Assembly (NCBI GenBank): GCA_024655825.1
Contig: JANLFJ010000018.1
Span: forward strand, 1-59,125
Direction: 5' to 3'
Length of the DNA stretch: 59,125 nucleotides
DNA from: Peptococcaceae bacterium
GTDB taxonomy: Bacteria; Bacillota; Peptococcia; DRI-13; PHAD01
Positions 4,410-36,739 of this stretch are shown here, one piece after another. The notes below the pieces were generated by a model. The model saw nothing but the letters and a program-made list of their open reading frames with translations. It did no database searches and was not told where the DNA came from. Each line of letters starts with the position of its first letter. The stretch's first letter is position 1. A program made the translations under genes and the position numbers.

Positions 4410-4622
4410 TCACCTCTTCCAAGGTGGTAAAGTATCAGGTGCTGCATCATCGACGATTGGTATTTTCAGTTCTATACCGGCCGGGAAAACGATAATGTCG
4501 GCATATTGCGGATTAGCCTGGATAAGCAGGGAGGCCTTCATCTCATCATTATAAGCATCCAAAGCCAGGATGTCCCAAGTGTCGCCGGCCATGGTTTTAT
4601 AAACAAAATAATCAGTAGCCAT
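4410..4622 (-). CDS. Tail protein X, LysM-like
   Basis: A 70-residue protein with a LysM-like pattern: a Y-x-V/T start, GDTWDILALDAYND, LIQANPQYADIIVFPAGIELKIP. This is the gpX / gp53-C type that stabilises the baseplate hub or tube junction. The ATG at 4622 has GGAGAGG about seven bases upstream and overlaps the tape-measure stop, so it is preferred over the longer frame from 4646. Confidence 0.82.
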   Translation of the reverse strand: MATDYFVYKTMAGDTWDILALDAYNDEMKASLLIQANPQYADIIVFPAGIELKIPIVDDAAPDTLPPWKR

Positions 4623-6045
4623 AAGACACCCTCTCCTTCCCGGCAAAATATCTTTCCATGATGGCTATGATTCTTTCTTCCATCTCTTCTCCGGCTTGGG
4701 CTGCTGCTTGCTTAATTACTCCCGGATCTCCGCCTGGTGCATGGATGGTAATCGGCATATCTATCTTAATTTGAGGCCCCACGCCTACTCCTAACATCTG
4801 AGCAGTTTTGGACAACAACCCGATACTCCGCTGATCGCCAGGTTTAATAGGTATGGCCATTTCCGGGCCAGCTTCGCCGAAAATAGAAGGCTTTATTGCA
4901 AGGCCACCCTGGGCAAATCCTTCTAACGCAGGGGTATTTTGATTTCCGCCACTTATTAATCCTTTTACCTTCGAAGTAACTTTTCCTATACCATCCAAAA
5001 CGGGGCCCAGGAACCCTACCAGCTTTTCGATGATGGGAACAACAATTTCGATTGCTTTACTCAGTACAGTACCGATAATATAAGCAACATCACCAATAAT
5101 AGGTGCTACTTTTTGTATCAATGGAATAAGTGTTTGAACTAAACTTACAACAGGTTTTGCCTTCTCTATTATGATAGCTAAGGCATTGCTTACTTTTTCC
5201 CCTGCTTGTGAGCCATCTATCCGTGAAATTACATTGTTGACTAAAGACAGACCCTTAGCGACAACCGGAATAACTCCCTGCATTATCTGCGATGATAATT
5301 GTTTATAGTTCTCTCTCAATAGCTTTTGTTGGTTAGCAAAACTGTCTTGAGTCCGCTGGAAGTCGCCCTGGGCATCCTTAGTAACTTCCATCAAGTATGC
5401 ATAGCGCAGCATAGTTTGCGACGCCTGGTCCATGGAATTATATGCTATGGTGATCCCTTTCGAAAGAGCAAAAGCTTCAAGGTTTGCCACGCTCATATTT
5501 ATCCCAAGCTGCTTAAGTGGCTCTGTCTCGCCAGATATGCCGGATCTAATCTTTTCAAAAGCTTCTTCCGGATCCAGGTTATAAAATGAAGCCATGTCTC
5601 CGGCCAGGCCCACCATGTCGGTAGATAGTTTCAGGACGCTCTCATCTGCAAGTCCGGACGATTTCAACATAGCTCCCAGGGTACCAGTATATCTTTTTGC
5701 TTCGAGTTCAGACAAACCATAAGCCTTCAAGGCTTCCTTTGACCATTTATTAATCTGACCCGCATCCTTGCCGAAAGTAACATCTACCACGTTTTGGACT
5801 TCCTGGAGATCTGAGGCTAGTTGTAGAACTTGCTTTCCGGCATTAAATAAAGCCCCGGCTACTTTAGATACAACCTGGGCTCCTAATACACCTTTGAAAA
5901 CCCCACCGGCAATGCTGCCGGTTTTTTTCATTGTGTCTTTCAATTTATTAGTCTGGCCAGTAGCTTTAAGGAGAGCGCTTTGAAGGGATGGATCGACCTT
6001 GCCAGCCAAGGTAATTAAAGCTTTTATTTCCTTTTGTGATGCCAT
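4612..6045 (-). CDS. Tail tape measure protein (short)
   Basis: A 477-residue tape measure protein, which sets tail length and occupies the tail lumen before DNA ejection. The N-terminal half contains the conserved core of TP901-type tape measures (VDVTFGKDAGQINKWSKEAL, LEAKRYTGTLGAMLKSSG, a stretch around residues 90-190). The C-terminal half has hydrophobic helices (about 280-350) and a Gly/Pro-rich tail (FAQGGLAIKPSIFGEAGPEMAIP). It is short for the family, so the tail is predicted to be short. The start lies inside the frameshifted extension of the chaperone gene, the usual arrangement. Confidence 0.88.
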   Translation of the reverse strand: MASQKEIKALITLAGKVDPSLQSALLKATGQTNKLKDTMKKTGSIAGGVFKGVLGAQVVSKVAGALFNAGKQVLQLASDLQEVQNVVDVTFGKDAGQINKWSKEALKAYGLSELEAKRYTGTLGAMLKSSGLADESVLKLSTDMVGLAGDMASFYNLDPEEAFEKIRSGISGETEPLKQLGINMSVANLEAFALSKGITIAYNSMDQASQTMLRYAYLMEVTKDAQGDFQRTQDSFANQQKLLRENYKQLSSQIMQGVIPVVAKGLSLVNNVISRIDGSQAGEKVSNALAIIIEKAKPVVSLVQTLIPLIQKVAPIIGDVAYIIGTVLSKAIEIVVPIIEKLVGFLGPVLDGIGKVTSKVKGLISGGNQNTPALEGFAQGGLAIKPSIFGEAGPEMAIPIKPGDQRSIGLLSKTAQMLGVGVGPQIKIDMPITIHAPGGDPGVIKQAAAQAGEEMEERIIAIMERYFAGKERVSYGY

Positions 6046-6528
6046 ACCTCTTCATCGCCTCCTTCTGCATTTTATCGGCCATATCAAGTAAGTCCAGATA
6101 TAAGTCTATAAACTCATGAACAGTCATCCTCATGTAAAAATGGATTGGAGTCCGAGTAAATATACAGGCATCTAAAGCTGCTTTTCTGAATTGCTTGCCT
6201 CGCCAGCCGGCGAATCCTCGGCGTCCAATCCTAATAAAAAATTTTTTGCCAACTCTCGAGCTTTAAGTGCATCTCGGCCAGTTAACCTTAGATAGTCCGA
6301 AACATCAGTTCCTTTATTTGCTTTGGCGGCCGAATACGCAAAGAAATAGCTATGCCATGTCATATTGAGCTCCTCAGTTGTTATGGTGACACAGCCCTGT
6401 TCTGTCATGTATTTTTCAGCATTAACCATATCCTGTAAAGTCATGGCATCAAAGTCATAAGCAATAGCAGAGACTTCCTCTCCATTGATCATGATAGGCT
6501 TTTTTAGTTCTAACACTTTCTTAGCCAT
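5966..6528 (-). CDS. Tail assembly chaperone, -1 frameshift fusion (G-T / E-E' type)
   Basis: If ribosomes slip -1 at T-TTT-TTA (6241-6235), translation leaves the 118-residue frame and continues open for 89 more codons to TAA at 5968-5966, inside the tape-measure gene, giving 187 residues. I translated the -1 frame by hand and found no stop. Its sequence includes a segment ending in TVHEFIDLYLDLLDMADKMQ, amphipathic like the T part of lambda G-T. The heptamer is in the correct phase (X is a third codon base), and a second canonical heptamer A-AAA-AAT (6247-6241) overlaps it by one base. Lambda G/T and P2 E/E' work this way; use here is inferred. Confidence 0.8.
6172..6528 (-). CDS. Tail assembly chaperone, short form
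   Basis: A 118-residue protein in the tail-chaperone position between tube and tape measure. It begins MAKKVLELKKPIMINGEEV, a beta-hairpin start seen in many tail chaperones, followed by an acidic helical part. It is expected to bind the tape measure while tube subunits polymerise, and is not in the virion. The last 20 codons lie beyond the slippery site, so this is the product of unshifted ribosomes, probably the major form. GGGAGG lies upstream of the ATG. Confidence 0.8.
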   Translation of the reverse strand: MAKKVLELKKPIMINGEEVSAIAYDFDAMTLQDMVNAEKYMTEQGCVTITTEELNMTWHSYFFAYSAAKANKGTDVSDYLRLTGRDALKARELAKNFLLGLDAEDSPAGEASNSEKQL

Positions 6529-6568: not shown

Positions 6569-7075
6569 TTACAGAGCTGCGTTTACTCTTCTCATGTAGT
6601 CCACACCGTCTACCCGGAATATGTTTGCCAATTTATCAATCAACAGAATCTCAACGCCATCCACGACCACACGATACCGCCAAATCTCATATGTCACGCT
6701 GCCTTCGATGGACCCGTTGTTTTCAATGGTTCCACCTTCGGATGATTTCATCACACCTGTGGCAAATACCTTAGACCCCTGAGGCAGCATCTGCCCGTTG
6801 GAATCCATATAGTCTTTTACAAAACGGATCTCGATATTTTGGTTACCTGGTTTTTGCAATCGAAGGACAGACCTGCTTACAGACTTATAAGATATAGACA
6901 GTTCAAGGGAACCAAACTGTCCCGTTGTCGGCATGGCAATAGTTCCCATGATACCAGCACCGTTCATTTCAACAGTTTGCTGTTCGATGTTCGGCAGCTG
7001 AATATTTATCACGTCATCAACTTCGATATCGTTAACTAATACGCGATGGTTAATAATATTGCCGGAACGCATCAT
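6569..7075 (-). CDS. Major tail tube protein (FII-like)
   Basis: A 168-residue tube protein immediately after the sheath, as P2 FII follows FI. The N-terminus (NHRVLVNDIEVDDVINIQLPNIEQQTVEMNGAGIMGTI) carries the family's strand-turn pattern with the conserved E-x-x-G-A-G-xx-G segment, and the C-terminus is an alternating beta region ending near YMRRVNAAL. It would stack as hexameric rings inside the sheath. The ATG overlaps the sheath stop; a second ATG directly follows, so the start may be 7072. Confidence 0.88.
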   Translation of the reverse strand: MMRSGNIINHRVLVNDIEVDDVINIQLPNIEQQTVEMNGAGIMGTIAMPTTGQFGSLELSISYKSVSRSVLRLQKPGNQNIEIRFVKDYMDSNGQMLPQGSKVFATGVMKSSEGGTIENNGSIEGSVTYEIWRYRVVVDGVEILLIDKLANIFRVDGVDYMRRVNAAL

Positions 7076-8535
7076 GCCGCCTCACCACCTTCCAGTAAAA
7101 CTGAAAGCCCGTCGGTAGTATAAGCTACCCAGGCCGTTATTGATTTGCCTTGTGGAGCAGTTGTGATCGGGATATCGAACCGGAAATTTCCTTCAATCAT
7201 GTCATTGGTAGGATTAACAGCCGGGTCAAAGTGGATAGTTGCTCCCAATACCCTTCCTCTAGCCCGCAGCATATCAAGCCACTCCTGGAAGCTGTTTAAA
7301 ATGGTATCAATCTTTTGCCTGTTCCATGTGGCGTCAACTTCCGGCCCGTAGGTTTTCTGAAAAGTATTTAGGATATGATACAGCATCCGCATCGAAGAAT
7401 CAAAAATACTCCTGGGATCGTTATCTGCACCATACTTATACGCACCGGTATGCCCGCCCCATAGTTTCCATTGGCCGCCCCAGAAGATAGCTGTTTTTAT
7501 CCCTTCAGCATTAAGCTGATTAGCCTGCTCCTGATCATAAGAAACAGGCACAATGCCGGAAGCCCCTTTTACAGCCAAACCGGTAATATCCACTCTTTTG
7601 TTACTGGGGGTTTCGGATGGAATATTGTCCTGCAGGTAGTCGGTTCTTTGGGCAGTTACAACGGCAAGGGTAGACAGATGGAATACTCTATCCCCGTTTA
7701 CTGCCAAAGGCCAGCAAGGAGACTCACATTCGGCGTTGTATCCATTGGCGTTTTTCCAGGTGATAGCCTTGGCTCTGGTGTTGGTTTCGGCATCAGCCGG
7801 AATGTCTGTAAATACAAAGGCATACCAGTGACCGTTAATTTTTTGGCTGGCTGCCACTAATGCATCCCTTACCGCCTTTTTATCACTCCAACCGGGAGCA
7901 GCCAGAATAGTGGGGATCTGGTTAAGGTTTTGATACACAAGGCCAACTGCCTGGATCCCGGTTCTGGTCTCATCCGTGATACCGCCAATAACTTCAGTTG
8001 TGGTTACGCTTTCCGGAGTAACTCTGTCATAAGTAACAGATACACTGGCACCCAACCCGCCGGTGAGATCCCTGATTATAACCTTAGAGCCGTCGGGTGA
8101 ATAGAAAGCAGTGTAATCGGTTCCAAAAACCTTTCCGGTTATCGTTATCGAGTCCAGGATAACTTTTTCATCTTTAATTACACCCTGAGAGTTAACAATT
8201 AAGACATTAACTGTAGTGGGTTCTCCACCTTTCATGGTTGCCGGGTCAAGAACATTGACCAAAACAATTGGCCCAATCGGCCCAATAGCAGATTTGAAAT
8301 GAGCATATATGGCCTCGCAAAGCTCATAATCTGCCCAGTTGTCGGAGTAGCCTATCTTGCGCACGGCATCTTCAAAACTGGAGACCAGGATCGGCTGGTT
8401 GACTAACCCTGTATAGTCCCTAATTTGATGCACCGGGGCCCGGCCAAAATATACCGGTAGAGTTGCAACACCGGAAGGCGGCAGCTGCCCGGTTGTTTGG
8501 CCTAACTCCCCATAGGCACCGTGTTTGTAAGGCAT
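7072..8535 (-). CDS. Contractile tail sheath protein (FI-like)
   Basis: The 487-residue product is a tail sheath subunit. The N-terminus (MPYKHGAYGELGQT, then LPVYFGRAP and the VNQPILVSSFEDA region) and C-terminus (GRVLGATIHFDPAVNPTNDMIEGNFRFDIPITTAP) match the insertion and core domains of P2/Mu-type sheaths; the terminal domain forms the intersubunit mesh that drives contraction. It defines the phage as a myovirus. AGAGGTG lies seven bases before the ATG. Length is normal for small myoviruses. Confidence 0.92.
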   Translation of the reverse strand: MPYKHGAYGELGQTTGQLPPSGVATLPVYFGRAPVHQIRDYTGLVNQPILVSSFEDAVRKIGYSDNWADYELCEAIYAHFKSAIGPIGPIVLVNVLDPATMKGGEPTTVNVLIVNSQGVIKDEKVILDSITITGKVFGTDYTAFYSPDGSKVIIRDLTGGLGASVSVTYDRVTPESVTTTEVIGGITDETRTGIQAVGLVYQNLNQIPTILAAPGWSDKKAVRDALVAASQKINGHWYAFVFTDIPADAETNTRAKAITWKNANGYNAECESPCWPLAVNGDRVFHLSTLAVVTAQRTDYLQDNIPSETPSNKRVDITGLAVKGASGIVPVSYDQEQANQLNAEGIKTAIFWGGQWKLWGGHTGAYKYGADNDPRSIFDSSMRMLYHILNTFQKTYGPEVDATWNRQKIDTILNSFQEWLDMLRARGRVLGATIHFDPAVNPTNDMIEGNFRFDIPITTAPQGKSITAWVAYTTDGLSVLLEGGEAA

Positions 8536-10635: not shown

Positions 10636-12576
10636 TTAGGTTCCTGCGTTCATATACAGTCCACGATAGTCAAGCACGGTTACGCCGTAGTCAATGTAAA
10701 TACGCCACTTGATTCCCAGGAAATCAAACCCGACTTGACTTTCCAGTTTCGGCATGTCGTCACCATTTAAATAAGTAACCTCAATGGTATCGACATCGGC
10801 TGGGTCAGCAGCCAAGAACCATGGGAACGGATTGCCAGGAGCAACAAGTGCATCAAGTTCAGCGTCAGCCACTAGTTCAAGAGTTCCGACAAACGGATTG
10901 ACGACGTTTTGTTGTGTTGGGATCAATGTCGCAGACAAAAACTGCTGCCCTTCAGTTTCCCAGGCTGCAGGCACAATCAGAAACTTCGGACCAATGTTCA
11001 GGATTTCATTGCCGCGCAGATTCCTTTGTGTACGCATAGCCGCACGTCCAGCGCCTACAGAGGCAACAGTAATATTTGCGCCCTGTGCGGCTAAGTTGTT
11101 ATGCGCTGCAACAAACAGCTGAAGGCCGTCAAAGATAACCGGGTTGGTCCCGAGCATCCGGTACACCAGCCGGTTAATGCCCCGACGGGCAGCCCGCACA
11201 TAGGCCTCCGGTACCCGAGTCAGAACGCCGATATCATCGTTGATGAGGGCCTGGCGGGTCATACCGAATTCACGGCCAAAGGTAGCAATCGCTTTGTTGA
11301 CACCCAGGTCCTGCATTTCATCGAACTTGAACTCCCCGCTCTGGGTCATCTGCACAAGATCGCCAGCTTCAGAAATCTGATAATGAGTTACCGCCTTGAA
11401 GTCGGGGTTGCTGCCCCTGCTGGTCCATCTCTGATAAGTGGTCTGGGCGGTCCGGTAAGCAGTGGCCATAGTCTTATTTACGGCGTTAGACAAAATGCTG
11501 GCAAACTGACTGTCCGGTGCCAAGGCCTCCCGGAAAAGCGTATCATTGTCCAAACGATGGGCATTCGCCCGGCCAGTCCGAACCAAACATTCAATTGCAA
11601 GATCACGCAGTGTCATACCCCGAAGATCCCGGGCCCCATCAACAGGCTTTTCAATGGTTCTACCGGCCCGAATTAAGATGGCATCGGACGCAGCCTCCCT
11701 AAACTTATCTGCTTCATCTCTTTCAACCTGCACTCCGCCGCTTGCAGTTATCGGCTTCATTTTTTCTTTTGCTTTTCCAAGCAACGCAACACGAACCTGA
11801 TCAACTGTGGAACCTTTTTCGATGTATTCCTTAGGATCCACATCGAAATCCCTGCACATAGCTGTTATTTCGCTGACGCGCTGCCTCTCAGCCTTAACAG
11901 CTTCTTCCCTTGCAGCCGACTCATTGACGGCCTCGGGAGTTTTTATTTCTTTCTTCTCGTTTTCATACATAGCCTTTTCCTCCTTCTCTGGAATAGTTTT
12001 ATCAGCACGGCCGTCGACCGGAGCTGCCACTTCATCTGCATTTCTTCCCACACCTACCGATGGGTCTGCCGGTGTGGGTTCAATGCTAATTTCAATTGGT
12101 TCCCATTTGATTGCAATATACGCTGGGCCGGTGAATCTGCCATTTGCCGATTTTTTCCCGGCTGCAACCTCTTCCCAATTGCTGACGGAATATCCCACAG
12201 ATACTCCTTTAATTATGCCTTTATTTACTTTCTGGAATATTCTGTCACTGTCCTCATCATCGTCAAAAGTTATTTGAGCTCTCCCTTTGCGCTCTTTGGT
12301 ATCTACCCATGCCTTTTCAATTTTGGCTATTGGCATCTTCCCCAAATTCGGGTCCCGGCCATGAGCAAAAAGTACTGTGCCTACTTCAAGCAATCTTGAA
12401 AGGTCAACCGCCTCTTCATCATGAGACAATATTTCAGGACCAAACCATCTGTCATACGGCAATTCGGAAGAAAAAGAAAGCTCCACTGTTCTGGAGTTTT
12501 CGTTAATTGCTTTTATCTGAGCTTCAAATGTTCTATGTTCCCAAATTCCCGTTTTGGGTTTCTTGTGTTCCAGCAT
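10636..12576 (-). CDS. Prohead protease - major capsid protein fusion
   Basis: One 646-residue frame carries two normally separate functions. Residues 1-175 resemble an S78-type prohead protease; likely catalytic residues are His72 (LFAHGRDPN) and Ser126 (IKGVSVGY). Residues about 195-275 are charged and helical, like a scaffolding delta domain. Residues about 300-646 are a major capsid protein with FGREFGMTRQALINDD and a C-terminal E-loop/beta region, resembling gpT/HK97-fold capsids. The start at 12576 is set by GGAGGTG; the frame runs on to 12621 into the portal gene. Self-cleavage after assembly is inferred. Confidence 0.85.
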   Translation of the reverse strand: MLEHKKPKTGIWEHRTFEAQIKAINENSRTVELSFSSELPYDRWFGPEILSHDEEAVDLSRLLEVGTVLFAHGRDPNLGKMPIAKIEKAWVDTKERKGRAQITFDDDEDSDRIFQKVNKGIIKGVSVGYSVSNWEEVAAGKKSANGRFTGPAYIAIKWEPIEISIEPTPADPSVGVGRNADEVAAPVDGRADKTIPEKEEKAMYENEKKEIKTPEAVNESAAREEAVKAERQRVSEITAMCRDFDVDPKEYIEKGSTVDQVRVALLGKAKEKMKPITASGGVQVERDEADKFREAASDAILIRAGRTIEKPVDGARDLRGMTLRDLAIECLVRTGRANAHRLDNDTLFREALAPDSQFASILSNAVNKTMATAYRTAQTTYQRWTSRGSNPDFKAVTHYQISEAGDLVQMTQSGEFKFDEMQDLGVNKAIATFGREFGMTRQALINDDIGVLTRVPEAYVRAARRGINRLVYRMLGTNPVIFDGLQLFVAAHNNLAAQGANITVASVGAGRAAMRTQRNLRGNEILNIGPKFLIVPAAWETEGQQFLSATLIPTQQNVVNPFVGTLELVADAELDALVAPGNPFPWFLAADPADVDTIEVTYLNGDDMPKLESQVGFDFLGIKWRIYIDYGVTVLDYRGLYMNAGT

Positions 12577-14047
12577 TTGTTTTGCCACCTCCTGATAAAT
12601 TAATACCCAGTTCCTGGGCAAGTTTTATTTCTGCCGCTCTTTGTTTCAGGACATCTCTCCAGTCCTCGCCTCGCTCAGCGCAAATCCTTGAAAGCGTATC
12701 CTGACCAGTTTCAATAGCCTTGGCGTTTGCTGTTACTTCTTTAAGGGGATCTATCCAGCTCCAGCCCGGAGCAATCCATACATGTTTAAGGTATTTCCTG
12801 CGATTCTGCCAAAAATCTGGTATATTAAGCTGTCCAGAAAGATCAGCAGAAATCAAAAATTCGGTATATACCTCCCTGCAGAAATGTTCAATCAAAAATT
12901 GCTGCCACATCATGTATGTGCGCTGGTCCTCCAGCATTCCCTGACGAGCACTGCTATAATTCACCTGCGACATGTCCCTGGATACTGCTTCATAGGAAAG
13001 GCCCTGACCACTGCCAGCCAACCTTTGCTGCATGGATATAAAATCCTTTGCGCTGGTTGCCTGTCCTGATGGTGTAACCGCTGCTATGCTTTCACCAGGC
13101 TGGAGCTCCTGGATCATCCCAGGCGATATAGTCCGCTGCTGATAGCCACTTTGATTATCTGTTTTACCTCTGCTTATTCCTCTACCCAATGCTCCACTAG
13201 GAATTTGTTTTGTAATAAATACAGATAGGCATGCAAGGATCCTTTCTTTTACCGCAACTGCTTCAACAAATTCATTTACATCCCGGACCCGGGGCAAGGT
13301 TTTGGCCAAAGGAGGCATTTCCCGGATCTGTGTCGGCCTTGTTTTCTTCCACAGAAAAATTACTCGCTGCGCTTCTATCCTTTCAGACTTTCCTGTCCAG
13401 AATCCGTCCGGCGTATATTTCTTAAGCCAATACGCTACGGGTTTATTGTACTCATCCATTTCAATGCCGCCGATTACTCGATTGCGACCTAAGCCGGGTA
13501 AAAAATTTATTGATGTATCAAGATCGTCTACCTCTCTGGCCTGCAAACAAAACGGCACGGGACCGGTATTGGTATACACCTTTACAAAAATAATCCCACC
13601 GTCTACCTGCAATCGCCTTATTGCCATAGCCTGCATTTCCTGAAATGATTGCTGCCCGGTTATGTCACAATTACGCGGTCTGCACCATTCATCCCACAAG
13701 TCCTCAATCTTCTGATTGAGTTCTTCATCCTCAGTGCCGTCAGATTTCAACACCTTGGCCTGTACTCGTATGCCCGTTCCAACCACATTTCGTTCAAGCG
13801 GTCCGACTATAGCTTCTGCTATATCGCTGTTACGTTCAAGATCCCGGGCCCGGGCGCGGATAATATCTCTCTGTTGGCGATCTGTTTGTTCAGCTGTACC
13901 ATTTACAGGCACCCATCCAGCATTTAACCGGTCGGTATTCCCTGCATCATAAAAGCCCCTTAGAGCCTGGCGCCATGCTACACGCCTATAGGCCCATGAG
14001 GGGCTAAAAAAACCAATAGTTTTGTCAAGCCAATTCAAATAAATCAC
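12533..14047 (-). CDS. Phage portal protein (lambda-type)
   Basis: A 504-residue portal protein, the dodecameric ring at the head vertex through which DNA is packaged. Typical segments are AWRQALRGFYDAGNTDRLNAGW, the RARARDLERNSDIAEAIVGPLERNVVGTGI stretch, YNKPVAYWLKK and YSSARQGMLEDQR near residue 375. These match the lambda gpB / Phage_portal_2 family. Its 3' end overlaps the protease-capsid gene by 44 bases and its ATG overlaps the gpW-like stop. Confidence 0.92.
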   Translation of the reverse strand: MIYLNWLDKTIGFFSPSWAYRRVAWRQALRGFYDAGNTDRLNAGWVPVNGTAEQTDRQQRDIIRARARDLERNSDIAEAIVGPLERNVVGTGIRVQAKVLKSDGTEDEELNQKIEDLWDEWCRPRNCDITGQQSFQEMQAMAIRRLQVDGGIIFVKVYTNTGPVPFCLQAREVDDLDTSINFLPGLGRNRVIGGIEMDEYNKPVAYWLKKYTPDGFWTGKSERIEAQRVIFLWKKTRPTQIREMPPLAKTLPRVRDVNEFVEAVAVKERILACLSVFITKQIPSGALGRGISRGKTDNQSGYQQRTISPGMIQELQPGESIAAVTPSGQATSAKDFISMQQRLAGSGQGLSYEAVSRDMSQVNYSSARQGMLEDQRTYMMWQQFLIEHFCREVYTEFLISADLSGQLNIPDFWQNRRKYLKHVWIAPGWSWIDPLKEVTANAKAIETGQDTLSRICAERGEDWRDVLKQRAAEIKLAQELGINLSGGGKTNAGTQETQNGNLGT

Positions 14048-34144: not shown

Positions 34145-34621
34145 ATGTACGAAACGCTCCTTGAAGAAGCTGCCAAAGAGCAGATCGAAATCGCATATCT
34201 CCCGTTAAAAGACAGGCTGAAAGGCTTATACGGTGATAACGTCATTGCCATTAACAGCAACATAAACACTACTGCCGAAAAGGCCTGCATCCTGGCCGAA
34301 GAGCTTGGCCACTATCACACAACGGTTGGTGATATCCTGGATCAAACCAAGCTTAATAATAAGAAACAAGAAAAGCGTGCCCATGTGTGGGCATACAAAA
34401 GACTTGTGCCGCTGGATAAATTAATATCAGCGTATGAAGCAAGAGTTATGAACAGATTTGAATTGGCTGAATACCTAGGCGTAACTGAAGATTTTTTAAA
34501 TAAAGCGATTGACTACTATAAAGAAAAATACGGCCTCTACTACCGTATCAGAGATTACTTTATTTGCTTTGAACCATTAATGATTATCGAAGCGTTTAAT
34601 GACAAAAAATTTTTACCCTAA
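34145..34621 (+). CDS. ImmA/IrrE-family metallopeptidase
   Basis: A 158-residue protein. The metal motif reads ILAEELGHYH (Glu52, Glu53, His56), where the first His of HExxH is Glu, a variant seen in phage members. The rest is helical with ANRFELAEYLGVT-like C-terminal repeats. In ICEBs1, ImmA cleaves the repressor ImmR; by position this protein would act on the CI-like repressor. Its 3' end overlaps the longer integrase frame. Confidence 0.82.
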   Translation: MYETLLEEAAKEQIEIAYLPLKDRLKGLYGDNVIAINSNINTTAEKACILAEELGHYHTTVGDILDQTKLNNKKQEKRAHVWAYKRLVPLDKLISAYEARVMNRFELAEYLGVTEDFLNKAIDYYKEKYGLYYRIRDYFICFEPLMIIEAFNDKKFLP

Positions 34622-34655
34622 TAACCGAATATATGTTCGTTATAAGGAGGCTTTT

Positions 34656-35819
34656 ATGCAAAAGTATACAACCAGAATAGATAAAATAGCGGAAAAACAC
34701 TACCGTATTGTCATTAATTTGGGCCGGGATAAGAACGGTAAGTATCCCAAAAAACGCCGTGATGTTCACGGTACACGCCCGGAGGCCGAAGAGGTCCTCC
34801 GGCAAATGCTAGATGAACTGGAAAACCCGCCTAAGAGGTTTTCCGAACAATTAACCGGCGAGTTTCTCCTTCTATGGGTGAATACCATCGCAAAGCCCGA
34901 TTTGGAGCAAAACACTTATGAAAGCTATAAATGGGAAATCGAAAGGCATATTAATCCTTGTATAGGACATATTCCCCTTTGTGAGCTTACACCTATGCAC
35001 ATCCAAACATTTTACAGCTATTTGGCAGAAGCCGGCAAGCTTCGTGGCAAGGGCGGGTTATCCAACCGGTCTGTGATCTATAAAGGGGCTATACTAAACC
35101 AGGCTCTTGCCAAGGCCGTCGATCTTGAGCTAATAGAAAAAAATCCCTGTGACAGCGTAAAGCCGCCCAGAGATAAAAAGAAAAAGCAAAAAAAGGATGA
35201 AATGATTGTCTTAACAAAAGAGGAGCTAAAAACTTTTCTGGCCGATACAAGAGACCATCCAGATTGGGCGCTCATACACACGGCAGCTTATACCGGCATG
35301 AGGCAATCAGAGCTTTTAGGTTTACGCCGCGAGGATATTCTATGGAAACAAAAGAAAATTCGTGTCAAGATGACTCTGCACCGGCTTCAAAATGGAGAAT
35401 ACGAACACCGGTCACGAACAAAAAACACTACAAGCACAAGACTTATTCCGGTAACACGACGGGTTTTGGCAGTCCTCAGATGGCACTTATGGAAGCAGTC
35501 AAAATCAATTAAAAGCACACCGAAAAACCAAAAATTTAATTCCCTTGTTTTTCTCGACCAGGAAGGCATACCGCTTGACAGAAGAAACTTGTCTCATCGT
35601 TTTTCTAATCTTGCGGCTAAAATGGGCTATCCCGGGATGAGATTTCATGATTTACGTCATACCCACGCAACAATTCTTTTGGCTGCTGGTGAAATGATCA
35701 ATGCCGTAAGTGAAAGGTTAGGCCATGCTGACGTTCAAACTACCCTCAATACCTATGGACATGTACTTCCCAAAAAGGCTGACGATACTGCGGAAAAATT
35801 TGATAAGCTACTCCAGTGA
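34656..35819 (+). CDS. int: Phage integrase (tyrosine recombinase)
   Basis: A 387-residue integrase starting at ATG 34656 (AAGGAGG five bases upstream). The N-terminal arm-binding domain is residues 1-60, the core-binding domain about 62-165, and the catalytic domain has Arg216 (YTGMRQSE), His331/Arg334 (HDLRHTHAT), His357 (LGHADV) and Tyr367 (LNTYGHV). It lies 100 bases from the 3' end of tRNA-Leu, the probable attachment gene. All catalytic residues are intact. Confidence 0.95.
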   Translation: MQKYTTRIDKIAEKHYRIVINLGRDKNGKYPKKRRDVHGTRPEAEEVLRQMLDELENPPKRFSEQLTGEFLLLWVNTIAKPDLEQNTYESYKWEIERHINPCIGHIPLCELTPMHIQTFYSYLAEAGKLRGKGGLSNRSVIYKGAILNQALAKAVDLELIEKNPCDSVKPPRDKKKKQKKDEMIVLTKEELKTFLADTRDHPDWALIHTAAYTGMRQSELLGLRREDILWKQKKIRVKMTLHRLQNGEYEHRSRTKNTTSTRLIPVTRRVLAVLRWHLWKQSKSIKSTPKNQKFNSLVFLDQEGIPLDRRNLSHRFSNLAAKMGYPGMRFHDLRHTHATILLAAGEMINAVSERLGHADVQTTLNTYGHVLPKKADDTAEKFDKLLQ

Positions 35820-35827
35820 TATTTTTT

Positions 35828-35861
35828 TAGCCCATAATTAGCCCATTTTTAGCCTTTAGCC
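35828..35861. repeat. TAGCC repeats behind integrase (candidate arm-type sites)
   Basis: TAGCC begins at 35828, 35839, 35850 and 35857; the first three are spaced by 11 bases and continue as TAGCCCAT/TAGCCT. They lie between the integrase stop and the attachment tRNA, where integrase arm-type or excisionase sites would be. Function is inferred. Confidence 0.5.
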
Positions 35862-35888
35862 TATTGTTTTATGCCTAAAAAGCAAAAT

Positions 35889-35909
35889 AAAAAAGGCCCG
35901 AACGCCTTG
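35889..35909 (-). terminator. Terminator downstream of the tRNA operon
   Basis: On the minus strand AAGGC, a GTTCGG loop and GCCTT, then TTTTTATTTT. It lies ten bases past the tRNA-Leu CCA. Because integration probably replaces the tRNA 3' end, this terminator may be phage-supplied. Confidence 0.7.
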
Positions 35910-35918
35910 TGTCTGTAG

Positions 35919-36005
35919 TGGTGCGGCTGAAGGGACTTGAACCCCCACGTCCTTGCGAACACTAGAACCTGAATCTAGCGCGTCTGCCAATTCCGCCACA
36001 GCCGC
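35919..36005 (-). tRNA. tRNA-Leu (CAG); probable prophage attachment gene
   Basis: The minus strand folds into an 87-base class II tRNA: acceptor GCGGCTG with CAGCCGC, anticodon loop TTCAGGT with CAG, a long variable arm, GGTTCAAGT T-loop, and an encoded CCA (35921-35919). Its 3' end faces the prophage integrase, the standard arrangement of tRNA-gene integration. Confidence 0.95.
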
Positions 36006-36073
36006 ATGTGCATGATACATATTATATTTTAGACTTCCCACTAAAAAAAGCAAGTGAAAAATTGTTATCCTCT

Positions 36074-36149
36074 TGGCTGGGGCGGCAGGAGTCGAACCTA
36101 CGCATGACGGAGTCAAAGTCCGTTGCCTTACCAACTTGGCTACGCCCCA
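36074..36149 (-). tRNA. tRNA-Gln (TTG)
   Basis: Acceptor TGGGGCG with CGCCCCA, anticodon loop CTTTGAC (TTG), T-loop GGTTCGACT, discriminator G and encoded CCA. It lies upstream of tRNA-Leu in the same operon. Confidence 0.93.
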
Positions 36150-36154
36150 GTAAA

Positions 36155-36240
36155 TGGTGGAGGGGGTAGGATTCGAACCTACGAAGGCAGTGCCAGCAGA
36201 TTTACAGTCTGCCCCCTTTGGCCAGCTCGGGAACCCCTCC
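36155..36240 (-). tRNA. tRNA-Tyr (GTA)
   Basis: Acceptor GGAGGGG with CCCCTCC, anticodon loop CTGTAAA (GTA), a long variable arm, T-loop GGTTCGAAT, and encoded CCA; 86 bases. Confidence 0.94.
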
Positions 36241-36273
36241 ATTTATCATGTTTGTTGTCCTGGATTCTAGGAA

Positions 36274-36349
36274 TGGAGCCGACGATGGGACTCGAACCCG
36301 CAACCTGCTGATTACAAGTCAGCTGCTCTGCCAATTGAGCTACGTCGGC
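36274..36349 (-). tRNA. tRNA-Thr (TGT)
   Basis: Acceptor GCCGACG with CGTCGGC, anticodon loop CTTGTAA (TGT), T-loop GGTTCGAGT, encoded CCA. The 70 bases between this and tRNA-Asp hold no further complete tRNA that I can fold. Confidence 0.94.
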
Positions 36350-36419
36350 ACATTCGCTGGCGGTCAATAGCCGGCACTAGTTGAACTGTCGACCATTCCA
36401 CCAGTAATGAGTTTATAGA

Positions 36420-36496
36420 TGGCGGAGCTGACGAGAGTCGAACTCGCGATCTCCTGCGTGACAGGCAGGCATGTTAGGCCACTACACCACAGCTCC
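36420..36496 (-). tRNA. tRNA-Asp (GTC)
   Basis: Acceptor GGAGCTG with CAGCTCC, anticodon stem CCTGC/GCAGG around CTGTCAC (GTC), T-loop AGTTCGACT, discriminator G and encoded CCA. Confidence 0.93.
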
Positions 36497-36571
36497 GGCC
36501 CGGGATATGTGAGGCGAGAGGTTAGAAGCAAGATTGTCCTGTTCCCAACTTCCCACTTTTCACTTGTTTTA

Positions 36572-36646
36572 TGGTGACCCGGACGGGAATCGAACCCGTG
36601 TTACAGCCTTGAAAGGGCCGTGTCTTAACCGCTTGACCACCGGGCC
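36572..36646 (-). tRNA. tRNA-Glu (TTC)
   Basis: Acceptor GGCCCGG with CCGGGTC (one G-U pair), anticodon loop CTTTCAA (TTC), T-loop GGTTCGATT, encoded CCA. The D-arm GTGGTCAAGCGGTTAAGAC is typical of tRNA-Glu. Confidence 0.94.
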
Positions 36647-36662
36647 ATATGACAATTATTCA

Positions 36663-36739
36663 TGGTCGGGGCAGAGGGATTTGAACCCCCGACCCCCTGG
36701 TCCCAAACCAGGTGCGCTTCCAAGCTGCGCTATGCCCCG
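36663..36739 (-). tRNA. tRNA-Pro (TGG)
   Basis: Acceptor CGGGGCA with TGCCCCG, anticodon loop TTTGGGA (TGG), T-loop GGTTCAAAT, encoded CCA. First gene of the tRNA operon, 20 bases past the promoter -10. Confidence 0.94.

What the first reader, a model, noticed from the sequence alone, without database searches (positions are those of the whole stretch)
5966..6528. Tandem canonical slippery heptamers in the tail chaperone give a predicted -1 frameshift fusion
A-AAA-AAT (6247-6241) and T-TTT-TTA (6241-6235) overlap by one base and both are in the correct phase for -1 slippage. The -1 frame then stays open for 89 codons, ending inside the tape-measure gene, and encodes an amphipathic T-like segment. 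Either or both heptamers may be used, so a mixture of products is possible. T-TTT-TTA is the heptamer used by HIV-1. Two overlapping canonical heptamers in one phage chaperone seems unusual.
Basis: partly seen in the sequence, partly recalled or inferred. Interest (0 to 1): 0.62.

Follow-up and report, generated by a model that had tools for sequence, protein, structure and literature searches.

The report
Prophage tail chaperone frameshift site
A prophage gene carries the slippery sequence that tailed phages commonly use to make a short and a long version of a tail-assembly helper protein; the slippery motif is slightly longer than usual here, but the arrangement is ordinary and shared with its relatives.

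Summary
The gene at 6172-6528 (minus strand) is the G-type tail assembly chaperone of a contractile-tail prophage. A AAA AAT and T TTT TTA are in phase, and the -1 frame is open for 89 codons, ending inside the tape-measure gene.

The -1 segment is real coding sequence. A profile built only from relatives' T segments picks it out of all six frames of the window (E 3.6e-12; next best 0.11). All 52 members compared, the window included, have an invariant NNT TTT at the same place, although TTT is only 53% of Phe codons elsewhere in these genes. So this is a new member of the known G/GT (P2 E/E+E') programmed frameshift.

The claim that overlapping heptamers are unusual is not supported: 12 of 52 members have two or more, and a pair also occurs elsewhere in this prophage. 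Only A AAA AAT is window-specific; it arises because a Lys AAA codon stands where most relatives have Arg or Gln. No downstream structure stands out. The predicted products differ only at residue 98 (Phe or Leu).

The parts
6172..6528 (-). G-type tail assembly chaperone ORF, 118 aa (zero-frame product)
   Evidence: phrog_3140 tail assembly chaperone E 1.2e-14
6241..6247 (-). heptamer A AAA AAT, in phase; found only in the window among 52 members
6235..6241 (-). heptamer T TTT TTA, in phase; a T TTT TTN heptamer is present in 32 of 52 members
5966..6235 (-). -1 frame T segment, 89 codons plus TAA stop at 5968-5966; the fusion product is 187 aa
   Evidence: profile of relatives' T segments E 3.6e-12
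4612..6045 (-). tail tape measure gene, 477 aa; its start overlaps the T segment by 80 nt
   Evidence: phrog_1535 E 6.3e-49; overlap
6569..7075 (-). tail tube protein gene (FII-like)
   Evidence: PF04985 Phage_tube E 5.4e-27
7072..8535 (-). tail sheath gene (contractile tail)
   Evidence: phrog_23 tail sheath E 1.2e-56
6142..6231 (-). possible long-range 8-bp stem (6231-6224 with 6149-6142) starting 4 nt after T TTT TTA; not distinguishable from background

Best explanation
This is the programmed -1 ribosomal frameshift of a tail assembly chaperone gene in a contractile-tail prophage. Most ribosomes read 6528-6172 and make the 118-aa G protein. A minority slip back one base on the run of codons AAA AAT TTT TTA and add the T segment, giving a 187-aa GT fusion. 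By analogy with lambda gpG/gpGT, G coats the tape measure protein and T recruits tail tube subunits, so the ratio of the two matters for tail assembly. The essential part of the site is the conserved T|TTT|TTN or A|AAT|TTT core. A AAA AAT is most likely a by-product of a Lys AAA codon in this lineage, at best a minor contributor. Shown here: frames, homology and codon-level conservation. Inferred: that slippage happens, how often, at which heptamer, and the chaperone role.
For: Gene order is sheath, tube, G/T, tape measure. Adding the -1 segment raises the phrog_3140 'tail assembly chaperone' score from 55.4 to 66.0 bits and extends the match from profile position 226 to 269. A profile from 24 relatives' T segments, window excluded, ranks 5969-6262 first of 1031 six-frame segments at E 3.6e-12, next 0.11. 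In all 26 first-round members the Phe codon at the site is TTT (53% elsewhere in these genes) and the codon before ends in T (54% elsewhere); under independence 7e-8 and 1e-6. This rises to 52 of 52 after extension. The same layout is annotated in phage P2 E/E+E', where the codons are GGT TTT TTG, and PMC3091744 reports the P2 shift at TTTTTTG.
Against: No expression data. The window's G alone scores below the Pfam Phage_TAC_7 cut-off (13.2 against 25 bits), and hhalign to P2 gpE alone finds nothing. No downstream stimulatory structure stands out and no SD-like sequence was seen just upstream. The members counted are related, so the independence probabilities are too small; in the second round the site was chosen by a pattern that requires Phe, though not a particular codon.
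Confidence: 0.93

Rival explanations
1. T is made as a separate small protein from its own start codon (ATG 6133 or 6127), not as a fusion.
For: In Paenibacillus phage Pd_22F the region after G is annotated as a separate hypothetical protein.
Against: No Shine-Dalgarno-like sequence at a usable distance precedes either ATG. The T frame is conserved from the slip site onward, upstream of those ATGs. The slip codons are conserved in every member.
Confidence: 0.03
2. The -1 frame is entered by transcriptional slippage on the A6/T6 runs (one inserted base), not by the ribosome.
For: There is an A6-T6 run at the site.
Against: Runs of six are short for RNA polymerase slippage (general knowledge). 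Relatives keep codon-phased NNT TTT, including members with only A AAT TTT, which fits tandem tRNA slippage better.
Confidence: 0.03
3. The overlapping heptamers are an evolved device that raises or tunes fusion output, all three being used.
For: Three in-phase heptamers in a row occur in only 2.8% of synonymous redraws. The predicted stem begins 3, 6 and 9 nt after the ends of the three heptamers (inference).
Against: The A AAA AAT part is absent from all 51 relatives, most of which have one or two heptamers. Two-heptamer runs occur elsewhere in the prophage.
Confidence: 0.1
4. The two-frame layout is a frameshift mutation or assembly error in one gene.
For: The window is a contig of a 98-contig draft assembly.
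Against: The relatives show the same two-frame layout at the same place.
Confidence: 0.005

Closest known systems
Phage P2 E / E+E' (FETUD operon)
   Same: Contractile-tail phage; gene between tube and tape measure; -1 shift on GGT TTT TTG (T TTT TTG); the extension's end overlaps the tape-measure start.
   Different: No significant sequence similarity to P2 gpE in a direct profile comparison; last base of the slip heptamer is A, not G; two further heptamers upstream.
Phage lambda G / GT
   Same: Same position and logic: a -1 fusion of a chaperone upstream of the tape measure (PMC5009743).
   Different: Lambda has a non-contractile tail; its heptamer was not compared here.
PHROG 3140 tail assembly chaperones of Bacillota phages (Faecalibacterium phage Lagaffe, Roseburia phage Shimadzu, phage nd4)
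   Same: Homologous G and T; slip site at the same codon.
   Different: Those three have a single heptamer (A AAT TTT or T TTT TTT); the T segment is shorter and overlaps the tape measure by 4 nt at most.

Membership tests
G/GT programmed -1 frameshift of tail assembly chaperones (dsDNA phages) | Gene lies between the major tail (tube) gene and the tape measure gene | tested here: met
G/GT programmed -1 frameshift of tail assembly chaperones (dsDNA phages) | In-phase X XXY YYZ heptamer near the 3' end of G with an open -1 frame | tested here: met
G/GT programmed -1 frameshift of tail assembly chaperones (dsDNA phages) | -1 frame encodes a T segment homologous to those of relatives | tested here: met
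   (E 3.6e-12)
G/GT programmed -1 frameshift of tail assembly chaperones (dsDNA phages) | Slip site conserved at nucleotide level among relatives | tested here: met
   52 of 52 NNT TTT
G/GT programmed -1 frameshift of tail assembly chaperones (dsDNA phages) | Fusion protein made at a defined ratio and needed for tail assembly | not testable with these tools
   needs protein data and mutants
G/GT programmed -1 frameshift of tail assembly chaperones (dsDNA phages) | Downstream stimulatory RNA structure (optional; rare in phages, absent in P2 according to PMC3091744) | tested here: inconclusive
   8-bp stem, MFE matched by 52 of 613 background segments; no structure shared by the family
Pfam Phage_TAC_7 (P2 gpE, Mu gp41) | Score above the Pfam gathering cut-off | tested here: not met
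   window G 13.2 against 25 bits; 14 of 22 members of its alignment match the model at E <= 0.01, best 1.8e-9
PHROG 3140 tail assembly chaperone | Significant profile match over G and T | tested here: met
   E 7.1e-18, residues 3-151 of the fusion

The most novel reading that the evidence does not exclude
A run of three overlapping in-phase heptamers gives the ribosome three successive chances to slip, raising GT output or making it robust, and yields two fusion isoforms that differ at one residue (Phe98/Leu98).
Probability: 0.1. Interest if true: 0.3.

Novelty: new member of a known kind. Interest (0 to 1): 0.14.

Why it matters
It adds a Bacillota prophage family to the known G/GT frameshifts. 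It also shows that the conserved core is a codon-phased NNT TTT, with the surrounding heptamers drifting among T TTT TTN, A AAT TTT and overlaps of the two. For annotation, it means the GT fusion is missing from GenBank entries of related phages, which list only G or split off T.

Tried and rejected
+1 and -2 shifts: stop within one codon. A downstream stem or pseudoknot-type stimulator: an 8-bp stem (6231-6224 with 6149-6142) is predicted, but the stability of its segment is matched by 52 of 613 same-length operon segments, and 147 of 1533 segments have an equally long helix that close to their start; relatives share no common structure, though a few have stable local hairpins. Close relatives of the T segment alone: none found in viral contigs or phages. 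Collection scans with alignment A1: no stretch conserved enough. Solved structures for the G profile: none. Papers on tandem or overlapping slippery heptamers: none relevant in the held library, which omits most subscription papers. No structure prediction was run: the fusion is not a plain translation of the DNA, and a model would not bear on the frameshift.

Full report
OBSERVATION. On the minus strand the ORF 6528-6172 (118 aa) contains, in frame, the codons GCA AAA AAT TTT TTA TTA. AAAAAAT (6247-6241) and TTTTTTA (6241-6235) are in the X|XXY|YYZ phase. After slippage at T TTT TTA the -1 frame is open for 89 codons, to TAA at 5968-5966, inside the tape-measure ORF 6045-4612. The previous stop in the -1 frame is at 6265-6263, just upstream of the site, and the +1 and -2 frames close within one codon. 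Slips at the first two sites give the same protein (...AKNFFIRIG) and the third gives ...AKNFLIRIG; all products are 187 aa.

IDENTITY. Upstream lie the tail tube gene (Phage_tube, E 5.4e-27) and the tail sheath gene (phrog_23, E 1.2e-56); downstream lies the tape measure gene (phrog_1535, E 6.3e-49). G matches phrog_3140 'tail assembly chaperone' at 55.4 bits over profile positions 128-226. The fusion matches at 66.0 bits over 128-269, so the -1 segment belongs to the same protein family. The window lies in a 3.16-Mb, 98-contig draft genome.

RELATIVES. Searches of viral contigs, genomes and phage records gave 26 distinct G genes including the window, later extended to 52. Most carry an in-phase heptamer at the same position (48 of 52) and a T-like -1 frame of about 53-81 codons (the window's is 89). 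A profile built from the relatives' T segments only, without the window, was run against 1031 six-frame segments of the window. It hits 5969-6262 (-) at E 3.6e-12, with the next best at 0.11. The T segment is therefore a real, conserved protein segment.

NUCLEOTIDE-LEVEL CONSTRAINT. In the first 26 members the Phe codon at the site is TTT 26 of 26 times, against 61 of 115 elsewhere in the same genes. The preceding codon ends in T 26 of 26 times, whatever amino acid it encodes (Asn, Asp, Ser, Tyr, Gly, Val, His), against 274 of 511 for comparable two-fold codons elsewhere. After extension both are 52 of 52. Under independence the first two probabilities are about 7e-8 and 1e-6. The sequences are related, and for most of the first 26 the site was located by its heptamer, so these figures overstate the case; in the extension the site was located by its amino acids (a Phe of either codon) and TTT was still invariant. 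The pattern is what a slip site predicts and a merely conserved protein motif does not.

IS THE TANDEM UNUSUAL? Among 52 members, 12 have two or more overlapping heptamers, usually A AAT TTT with T TTT TTN; 36 have one; 4 have none of the canonical form, among them phages with GTT TTT ATC and GAT TTT ATT. A AAA AAT is found only in the window, because a Lys AAA codon stands where most relatives have Arg or Gln. Redrawing codons from the prophage's own usage with the protein fixed gives two in a row in 18% and three in a row in 2.8% of cases. Another structural gene of the prophage has an A AAT TTT/T TTT TTA pair at 13508/13505. The tandem therefore needs no special explanation; the triple is mildly uncommon.

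STIMULATORS. An 8-bp stem (6231-6224 with 6149-6142) is predicted to start 4 nt after T TTT TTA. The stability of the 115-nt segment is matched by 52 of 613 same-length operon segments, and 147 of 1533 segments have an equally long helix that near their start. The family shares no common structure. No Shine-Dalgarno-like sequence was seen just upstream of the site. P2 and P2-like phages also lack a predicted hairpin according to PMC3091744, so its absence does not count against frameshifting.

MECHANISM. Best reading: a minority of ribosomes slip -1 on AAT TTT TTA and make GT. In lambda, G and GT bind the tape measure protein and T binds the tail tube subunit; neither is in the finished virion, and the ratio matters (PMC5009743). 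Transfer of that role to this prophage is inference from gene order and homology. The frameshift itself is inferred from conservation; nothing here measures it.

COMPARISON. The closest described system by layout is P2 E/E+E': the extension there also ends within the start of the tape measure gene, and the site is GGT TTT TTG. Homology of G to P2 gpE is not shown directly; it is suggested by 14 of 22 members of the alignment matching the Pfam model named for E, 41 or 14 proteins, whereas the window's own G falls below that model's cut-off.

DIFFERENCES OF THE WINDOW. The T segment ends 80 nt inside the tape measure gene, against 25 nt at most in the relatives compared, giving a roughly 24-residue C-terminal extension with no counterpart. 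Its significance is unknown.

VERDICT. Known kind, new member, low interest.

Noticed in passing
34599-36739: A phage-integrase-like ORF (34599-35819, +) ends next to a seven-tRNA array. The 42 nt at the 3' end of tRNA-Leu(CAG) (35919-35960) recur exactly on contig C30 (38074-38115) of the same genome, followed there by an HTH-regulator-like ORF and an M23-peptidase-like ORF (named by eye from the sequence). This suggests the prophage sits in tRNA-Leu and its other end lies on C30.
   Followed up: partly
5966-6045: The T frame overlaps the tape measure gene by 80 nt, more than in any relative compared (25 nt at most), giving a C-terminal extension ITKGNKSFNYLGWQGRSIPSKRSP without counterpart.
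   Followed up: partly
13499-13508: Another overlapping in-phase heptamer pair (A AAT TTT / T TTT TTA, starting at 13508 and 13505) in the structural gene 12533-14047; probably chance.
   Followed up: no
L007 1690-1960 and L011 1690-2010: Two relatives (Paenibacillus phage Pd_22F and an unannotated gut phage) have a T-like -1 frame but no canonical heptamer, only GTT TTT ATC or GAT TTT ATT, suggesting slippage of a single tRNA on T TTT.
   Followed up: partly
L008, L009, L010: GenBank records of phages nd4, Lagaffe and Shimadzu annotate only the G protein; the GT fusion is missing.
   Followed up: yes
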